Shown here: positions 21,221-22,481 of the stretch, piece by piece | How positions within the stretch are numbered: the first letter of the stretch is position 1 | How the letters are laid out: each line of letters starts with the position of its first letter | From: Syntrophaceae bacterium | GTDB taxonomy: Bacteria > Desulfobacterota > Syntrophia > Syntrophales > Smithellaceae | Length of the DNA stretch: 32,855 bases | NCBI GenBank assembly: GCA_003141615.1 | Contig: PLMV01000116.1 | Span: forward strand, 1-32,855 | Direction of reading: 5' to 3' | Program-made: the position numbers and the translations under genes | Notes under the pieces: generated by a model | The model's database searches: none | Told to the model about the DNA's origin: nothing | What the model saw: the letters and a program-made list of their open reading frames with translations, nothing else

Positions 21221-21670
21221 ATGTTTGATTTGAATCAAGACAAACTCAAAATTAAAGCAGCAAAGTTTCTCAATTATTTTCAAAAGCCGATAAGCAGAAT
21301 TACAGAGATTATATTACTGATCGCTTTCACGGCAGTCGCCTATATGTTTCTTTTATATTGTGCAAAATACTTGTGGGTTTTATTTACAGCCACAGATGTC
21401 GGACAGGCATATGCTGAAATATATGTGGAAAGTTACAGGATAACTAACGATGTATTGAACAGAGGTATTTTCAGTCTTTCAATGAGCATGACACTGACTT
21501 CTTGTGTAATATGTCTTATTGTCGGTGCGGTGTTTAAATTTCTGCATATCATCCAATATTTCTATTCGGCTAGAGGTTTTTTGGGTAGAATCATTTTTAC
21601 AGGGCTACCTTTGACGTTTATTCCCCTGCGGCAGAGACCGCAGGGCGAAATAAGGAATAGTTTTTTATAA
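21221..21670 (+). pseudogene. 5' part of a disrupted membrane/TPR protein gene
   Basis: From the ATG at 21221 (GGAAG upstream; a TTG eight codons earlier is less likely) the frame encodes two hydrophobic segments, around IILLIAFTAVAYMFLLY and MTLTSCVICLIVGAVF. The native sequence ends at about 21603 (IIFTG), where a 149-bp insertion begins; the last ~20 codons to the stop are read from the insertion. The original product appears to continue at 21753. No family is recognised. The upstream gap (21058-21220) is AT-rich and holds a copy of a short motif (TTATGCTAGATTACAA) found again at 27437. Confidence 0.6.
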
Positions 21671-21752
21671 TCTTGGAAACCTAAGGTTTCCAAACCTTCC
21701 TAAAGGGAAGGCTGTGGCAGAGACCACAGCGTGAAATTTTTATATTTACAGG
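21604..21752. mobile_element. 149-bp hairpin-rich insertion with 8-bp direct repeats
   Basis: TTTACAGG at 21596-21603 is repeated at 21745-21752, and removing the segment between rejoins the host reading frame (FTG to CFRF). The insert holds four hairpins: CCCTGCGG/CCGCAGGG (21624-21645), TTGGAAACC/GGTTTCCAA (21673-21693), CCTTCC/GGAAGG (21695-21711) and GCTGTGG/CCACAGC (21711-21730). The first and last share the loop CAGAGA although their stems differ by paired changes. No protein is encoded; a non-autonomous MITE-like element is inferred. Confidence 0.55.
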
Positions 21753-21777
21753 ATGCTTCAGATTCGCCGAAGAATTT

Positions 21778-22227
21778 GTGCCGGAGTTAGTTGATGTAAT
21801 ATTTATTTTCAGCGGACAGCATAGAAAGATTAGTAGTAACCCGAAAGAGGGAGAAGTCCGGAGCAGGGCAGACGAGTTAATACAGAAAAAAGATACAAAA
21901 CAAAGCAGCGTTGACTGGCAAATAATGTCAAAAGATATATGGGAATCGTTTGCGGCATATATCATAGTTATACTAGTTATTATAGTAGTCGCCGGCATTA
22001 TGTTCGTAATTCCACACGTACAAAACTTCAACAAAAGTGAAGAGCCAGCACTAGCAGAGGCTCCTAGAGATAAGCCACCCGTTGCTCAATCTGGAGCACC
22101 TGGACTTTCTGATGCAGTACCTGGCTCGGCGAAGGAATGGTATGATAAGGCGCTTGTTCTAATTGACAACGCAAATCGCACTGATTTCCTAAAGTCTATT
22201 GAATATCTGAACGGGCCATCCGCCTGA
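21778..22227 (+). pseudogene. Middle part of the disrupted membrane/TPR gene
   Basis: A frame continuing the same protein after the insertion. It contains a third hydrophobic segment (YIIVILVIIVVAGIMFVI), then an Ala/Pro-rich linker and the beginning of a TPR-like helix ending LKSIEYLN. There the frame is lost: GGGCC reads into a stop, whereas one extra G would give a continuous AIRLKPDYV TPR signature. The true frame is open upstream of the GTG at 21778, reaching back into the insertion, so this is not an independent gene. Confidence 0.6.
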
Positions 22228-22238
22228 AACCGGATTAT

Positions 22239-22481
22239 GTGGATGCTTACAGGGAGCGAGGGTTTTTTTATGCCAAACTGGAACAGTATGAACTTGCCAT
22301 CAATGATTATGATGAGGTTATCCGCCTGAAACCGAATGATGTTTCTGCCTACAATATGCGAGGGCATGCTTATTTTTTGCAGGATAATATCAGTCTTGGT
22401 TGTTCTGACGCACGAAAAGCGTGCGCATTGGGAAACTGCAAATTGTTAGAATTGACTAAAAGCAATGGATACTGCCGTTGA
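22239..22481 (+). pseudogene. 3' part of the disrupted gene: TPR repeats
   Basis: Encodes tetratricopeptide repeat sequence: the RLKPDYVDAY-type unit just upstream, then RGFFYAKLEQYELAINDYDE, IRLKPNDVSAYNMRGHAYF and a Cys-containing terminal repeat. It joins in sense to the preceding fragment if one G is restored near 22218. TPRs mediate protein-protein contacts. As it stands, the three fragments cannot produce the full protein without frameshifting. Confidence 0.65.

What the first reader, a model, noticed from the sequence alone, without database searches (positions are those of the whole stretch)
21596..21752. 149-bp structured insertion that breaks a gene and shows compensatory stem changes
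Direct repeats TTTACAGG flank a segment whose removal rejoins the coding sequence in frame (FTG-CFRF). Inside are four successive hairpins. The first and last share the loop CAGAGA and following GCGAAAT/GTGAAAT, but their stems differ in paired ways (CTGCGG/CCGCAG against CTGTGG/CCACAG), a mark of selection on base-pairing. This implies a functional, mobile, non-coding element family rather than random sequence.
Basis: partly seen in the sequence, partly recalled or inferred. Interest (0 to 1): 0.6.

Follow-up and report, generated by a model that had tools for sequence, protein, structure and literature searches.

The report
Miniature IS200-type single-strand transposon copy
This is one of about a dozen near-identical copies of a tiny gene-less jumping element that matches the ends of an IS200-type transposon in related bacteria; it broke a membrane-protein gene, and apart from a 90-base deletion beside it, it is an ordinary member of a known class.

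Summary
The mobile unit is window 21616-21743 (128 bp, GTTTATTCCCC...TTTTTAT). It has at least ten full copies at 97-100% identity in the same genome, plus truncated, single-hairpin and diverged copies, and relatives in the same genus.

It makes no target duplication. At two sites the empty locus in a sister species shows insertion exactly 5' of RTNTA (22 of 22 copies). Read on the minus strand this is TANAY|element, the IS200/IS605 layout. Two related genomes carry 578-581 bp elements with the same terminal hairpins around an IS200-type Y1 transposase (PF01797, NF033573). The best explanation is therefore a non-autonomous (PATE/MITE-like) IS200/IS605-family element, moved as single-stranded DNA by a TnpA supplied in trans. 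No such TnpA was found in this incomplete genome.

The TTTACAGG repeat is coincidence. Intact orthologues have 30 extra codons at the site, so the insertion came with a 90-nt host deletion and removal does not restore the gene. The paired stem change is genuine but fits selection for transposase-recognised DNA hairpins, not a functional RNA. It is a new family of a known kind.

The parts
21616..21743 (-). 128-bp non-autonomous IS200/IS605-type element; the transposing orientation (target 5' of left end) is the minus strand
   Evidence: 10+ copies begin at this base and end at this point; no TSD; empty sites
21744..21748 (-). target pentamer ATTTA on + (TAAAT on the minus strand), host DNA flanking the left end
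   Evidence: RTNTA in 22 of 22 copies; present in empty sites of G010; GTTTA in the host orthologue
21710..21743 (-). left end (LE): hairpin CTGTGG-loop-CCACAG at 21712-21729 plus ATTTC-bearing 5' foot and tip
   Evidence: 82% identical to the LE of the IS in G019/G092; covariance model hits
21616..21648 (-). right end (RE): hairpin CCCTGCGG-loop-CCGCAGGG at 21624-21645, tip GAATAAAC on the minus strand
   Evidence: 24/24 nt identical to the RE hairpin of the IS in G019/G092
21673..21694 (.). internal hairpin TTGGAAACC/GGTTTCCAA
   Evidence: folding
21695..21711 (.). subterminal hairpin CCTTCC/GGAAGG, in the place of the CCGCCTAAGCGG hairpin of the autonomous IS
   Evidence: folding; comparison with L037
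21221..21615 (+). 5' part of the interrupted membrane-protein gene
   Evidence: orthologues in G010 (52%) and G021 (45%)
21744..22200 (+). 3' part of the interrupted gene; 30 codons (90 nt) between the two parts are missing relative to G010 and G021

Best explanation
Window 21616-21743 is a miniature non-autonomous element of the IS200/IS605 family (PATE/MITE-like). It keeps the two terminal DNA hairpins and tips of an IS200-type element and has no transposase gene. A Y1 HUH transposase supplied in trans binds the single-stranded hairpins on the minus strand, cuts the left end after TANAY and the right end after TAAAC, circularises the single-stranded element, and inserts it 3' of another TANAY without duplicating the target. 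Shown: copies, ends, target, absence of duplication, and transposase-bearing relatives with the same ends. Inferred from the family: the single-strand pathway and supply in trans. The insertion broke a membrane-protein gene and came with, or was followed by, a 90-nt deletion on its right-end side.
For: Ten full copies at 97-100% identity plus partial ones in the same genome with unrelated flanks. Empty sites: G010 TAATAATA|ATTTAATGAGG against TAATAATA[element]ATTTATTGAGG, and G010 GGTTT|ATATATCTAT against AGTTT[element]ATCTATCTAT. RTNTA at 22/22 insertion points, against 0.6% of window positions. IS of 578 and 581 bp in G019 (same family) and G092 (same order) with the same hairpins and target and similar tips, enclosing a TnpA that matches PF01797 (4.7e-32), NF033573 IS200/IS605 transposase (5.1e-31, above cut-off) and solved IS200/IS605-type transposases including ISHp608. 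Family features as described in PMC7290912 and PMC6006769.
Against: No matching TnpA was found in this genome (89.7% complete, repeats break contigs) or with these ends in its genus; the known IS differ in the right-end tip (GTTCAC/GTTTAC against TAAAC). The L006 site differs from its empty paralogue by 2 nt beyond the element. The middle third (about 21649-21694) has no counterpart in the IS.
Confidence: 0.92

Rival explanations
1. A REP/REPIN-type repeat moved by a RAYT (TnpA-REP) transposase rather than an IS200-group relic.
For: Single-hairpin solo copies of about 40 bp exist (L017, L036, L043, L046); a RAYT-like Y1 gene with an internal TGA is present in the own genome.
Against: The ends match an IS200-group IS whose TnpA scores on NF033573 above cut-off and below the cut-off of the REP-transposase model. 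The RAYT-like locus L031 carries no such hairpins (by eye). No GTAG/CGTC tag at the hairpin foot.
Confidence: 0.04
2. A self-splicing or otherwise functional structured RNA (intron-like) that is removed from the mRNA.
For: Strong fold; removal keeps frame.
Against: No Rfam match at gathering threshold; the fold is as strong as DNA and on the other strand; copies sit in unrelated and often intergenic flanks; joining the flanks leaves out 30 conserved codons.
Confidence: 0.02
3. A classical DDE MITE with a 4-bp TTTA duplication.
For: The element as aligned begins GTTTA and is followed by RTNTA, so a TTTA repeat can be read at some copies.
Against: The left GTTTA is constant while the right pentamer varies (ATATA, ATCTA, ATGTA), and the empty sites have one pentamer matching the right one. 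The inverted repeats are internal hairpins, not terminal repeats of each other.
Confidence: 0.02

Closest known systems
IS200-group elements of the IS200/IS605 family (here: the unnamed 578-581 bp IS in G019:C66 and G092:C86; type members IS200, IS608, ISDra2)
   Same: subterminal hairpins (24/24 nt identical RE hairpin), insertion 3' of a short fixed target, no duplication, same target RTNTA
   Different: no tnpA, 128 bp, different middle, right-end tip TAAAC instead of GTTCAC/GTTTAC
PATEs (palindrome-associated transposable elements, ends-only derivatives of IS200/IS605 elements)
   Same: ends-only, hairpin-bounded, non-autonomous, multicopy
   Different: a different sequence family, in Syntrophaceae; includes recombined single-hairpin forms
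REP/REPIN and RAYT
   Same: short hairpin repeats dependent on a Y1 enzyme
   Different: no REP tag; the TnpA relative is of IS200 type
STnc490 (art200), IS200 antisense RNA, Rfam RF01405
   Same: weak cmscan match 26 bits, E 0.0016 on the minus strand
   Different: far below gathering score 56; not used as evidence

Membership tests
IS200/IS605 family (non-autonomous derivative) | Y1 HUH transposase acting on these ends | tested here: inconclusive
   present between the same ends in G019 and G092; not found in the own genome
IS200/IS605 family (non-autonomous derivative) | no target site duplication | tested here: met
   empty sites
IS200/IS605 family (non-autonomous derivative) | insertion 3' of a specific tetra/pentanucleotide next to the left end | tested here: met
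   TANAY on the minus strand in 22/22
IS200/IS605 family (non-autonomous derivative) | subterminal hairpins at both ends, no terminal inverted repeats | tested here: met
IS200/IS605 family (non-autonomous derivative) | guide sequence 5' of each hairpin pairing with the cleavage site | tested here: inconclusive
   ATTTC lies 3 nt before CTG at both ends with cleavage sites TAAAT/TAAAC; in the IS the RE foot (TTAAC) and the RE tip both differ; read by eye, no binding test
IS200/IS605 family (non-autonomous derivative) | single-stranded circular intermediate, lagging-strand bias | not testable with these tools
   needs experiment
REP/RAYT | GTAG/CGTC tag at hairpin foot and association with a RAYT gene | tested here: not met
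   ends read; RAYT-like locus without these hairpins; TnpA below REP model cut-off
DDE-type MITE | terminal inverted repeats and fixed-length target duplication | tested here: not met

The most novel reading that the evidence does not exclude
The roughly 40-bp single-hairpin copies (such as L043 and L017), in which one hairpin carries the left-end foot on one side and the right-end tip on the other, are themselves mobile, so that one hairpin serves as both ends of a single-strand transposon; and the transposase also makes deletions at the right end, as the 90-nt loss in the window.
Probability: 0.12. Interest if true: 0.45.

Novelty: new member of a known kind. Interest (0 to 1): 0.22.

Why it matters
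It is a small family of IS200/IS605-type miniature elements in Syntrophaceae, apparently young in this genome (several copies identical), with likely autonomous relatives, target and empty sites identified. It illustrates that gene disruption by such elements can carry an adjacent deletion, so excision need not restore the gene. It does not open a new class.

Tried and rejected
8-bp TTTACAGG target duplication: rejected (no other copy has it, left repeat absent from the orthologue). Boundaries 21596-21744: rejected by the copies. An earlier reading of mine, that GTTTA at the left is the target and stays in the host: rejected, because the empty sites match the right pentamer and the left GTTTA is constant. 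RAYT of the own genome as the source (L031): no matching hairpins. G010, G005 and G039 IS200 copies: no matching ends. The more distant TnpA relatives L175-L179 lack these hairpins. No match in plasmids nor exact pattern in viral contigs. A genome-contig scan found one named relative, a Syntrophaceae bog MAG, PLGI01.

Full report
What is there. The single strand of 21596-21752 folds much better than shuffled sequence, as RNA (z -5.7) and as DNA on both strands (z -5.8 and -5.9). The outer hairpins are a 26-nt repeat with loop CAGAGA and stems that differ by a paired change. No Rfam family reaches its gathering score anywhere in the window.

Copies and borders. A search of the own genome (3.54 Mb, 218 contigs, 89.7% complete) finds ten full copies at 97-100% identity, three cut off by contig ends, and shorter or diverged ones. 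Aligned with flanks, all begin at the base that is window 21616, and the shared part ends at 21748. Flanks are otherwise unrelated.

Empty sites. At the C106 copy the sister species G010 reads TAATAATA|ATTTAATGAGG where this genome reads TAATAATA[GTTTATTCC...]ATTTATTGAGG. At the C174 copy G010 reads GGTTT|ATATATCTAT where this genome reads AGTTT[element]ATCTATCTAT. Both put the element at GTTTATTCC...TTTTTAT, without duplication, immediately before a host pentamer RTNTA. That pentamer is present in 22 of 22 copies listed by hand, and at 0.6% of window positions. A third site, with an empty paralogue in the own genome, agrees except for 2 nt. Note that the C106 copy has an assembly gap (NN) inside.

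Origin. DNA relatives occur in the same genus and family. In G019, two hairpins lie about 540 bp apart around a 149-aa ORF on the opposite strand, which is a Y1 transposase: PF01797 E 4.7e-32, NF033573 IS200/IS605 transposase 5.1e-31, REP-type model below its cut-off, similar to solved transposases including ISHp608 (that 2xm3 is ISDra2 is from my own knowledge). G092 has an 87% identical TnpA between the same ends. These IS are 578 and 581 bp; the RE hairpin is 24/24 identical to the window element, the LE 82% over 40-44 nt, and both are followed by RTNTA (ATTTA, ATCTA). Read in the coding sense of that transposase, the window element lies on the minus strand: TAAAT|ATAAAAATTTCACG-hairpin ... 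hairpin-GAATAAAC. That is the layout described for the family: insertion 3' of a tetra- or pentanucleotide, subterminal hairpins, no duplication, no inverted repeats (PMC7290912; PMC6006769). Ends-only derivatives are known as PATEs (PMC7290912).

Base-pair changes. On 15 end sequences, 97.8% of stem cells pair; one pair changes on both sides (U-A in 9, C-G in 5) and the structure beats all slides, but only that one pair covaries. This is modest support for selection on pairing, and fits recognition of DNA hairpins by TnpA. In the sequences the subterminal hairpin also differs in a paired way (CCTTCC/GGAAGG against CCGC/GCGG), which I did not test statistically.

The host gene. It encodes a membrane protein with orthologues in G010 and G021. 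Both have GLPL(A/T)-YIVA...(30 residues)-F(T/M)G.F at the site, and the window has GLPLT-[element]-FTGCF. Ninety nucleotides of host sequence are therefore missing on the RE side of the element. Whether deletion and insertion were one event is not shown.

Single-hairpin forms. L017, L036, L043 and L046 carry one hairpin with the RE tip on one side and the LE foot on the other, and RTNTA next to it. They could come from recombination between the two end hairpins of a full element, or be mobile themselves; not resolved.

Limits. No autonomous copy was found in this genome or genus, which may be due to the incomplete assembly or to loss. Movement is inferred from empty sites, not observed.

Noticed in passing
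window 22200-22481: The interrupted gene seems to have a second lesion: TPR-like sequence (AIRLKPDYVDAYRERGFFYAKLEQYELAINDYDEV) continues in another frame after about 22200.
   Followed up: no
L016 (G000:C182:5750-5873): A diverged subfamily copy with altered stems (TTTGGGG/CCCCAGG; CTGCGG with another loop), suggesting an older wave.
   Followed up: partly
L038 and L044 (G021): Two-hairpin variant GTGAACTACCCTGCGG...GTATTACCCTGTGG in two unrelated sites, with two same-facing ends and no LE-type foot seen.
   Followed up: no
L031 (G000:C174:18051-18353): RAYT-like Y1 transposase gene with an internal TGA, beside a stretch rich in short CAGCT/GTAGCT repeats.
   Followed up: no
window 21610-21713, minus strand: Sub-threshold Rfam match to STnc490, an RNA antisense to IS200 (26 bits against a gathering score of 56).
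   Followed up: partly
L006 (G000:C161:4463-4595) and G000:C39:52760-52993: Another copy lies inside a gene with an empty paralogue in the same genome; the joined flanks differ from it by 2 nt.
   Followed up: partly
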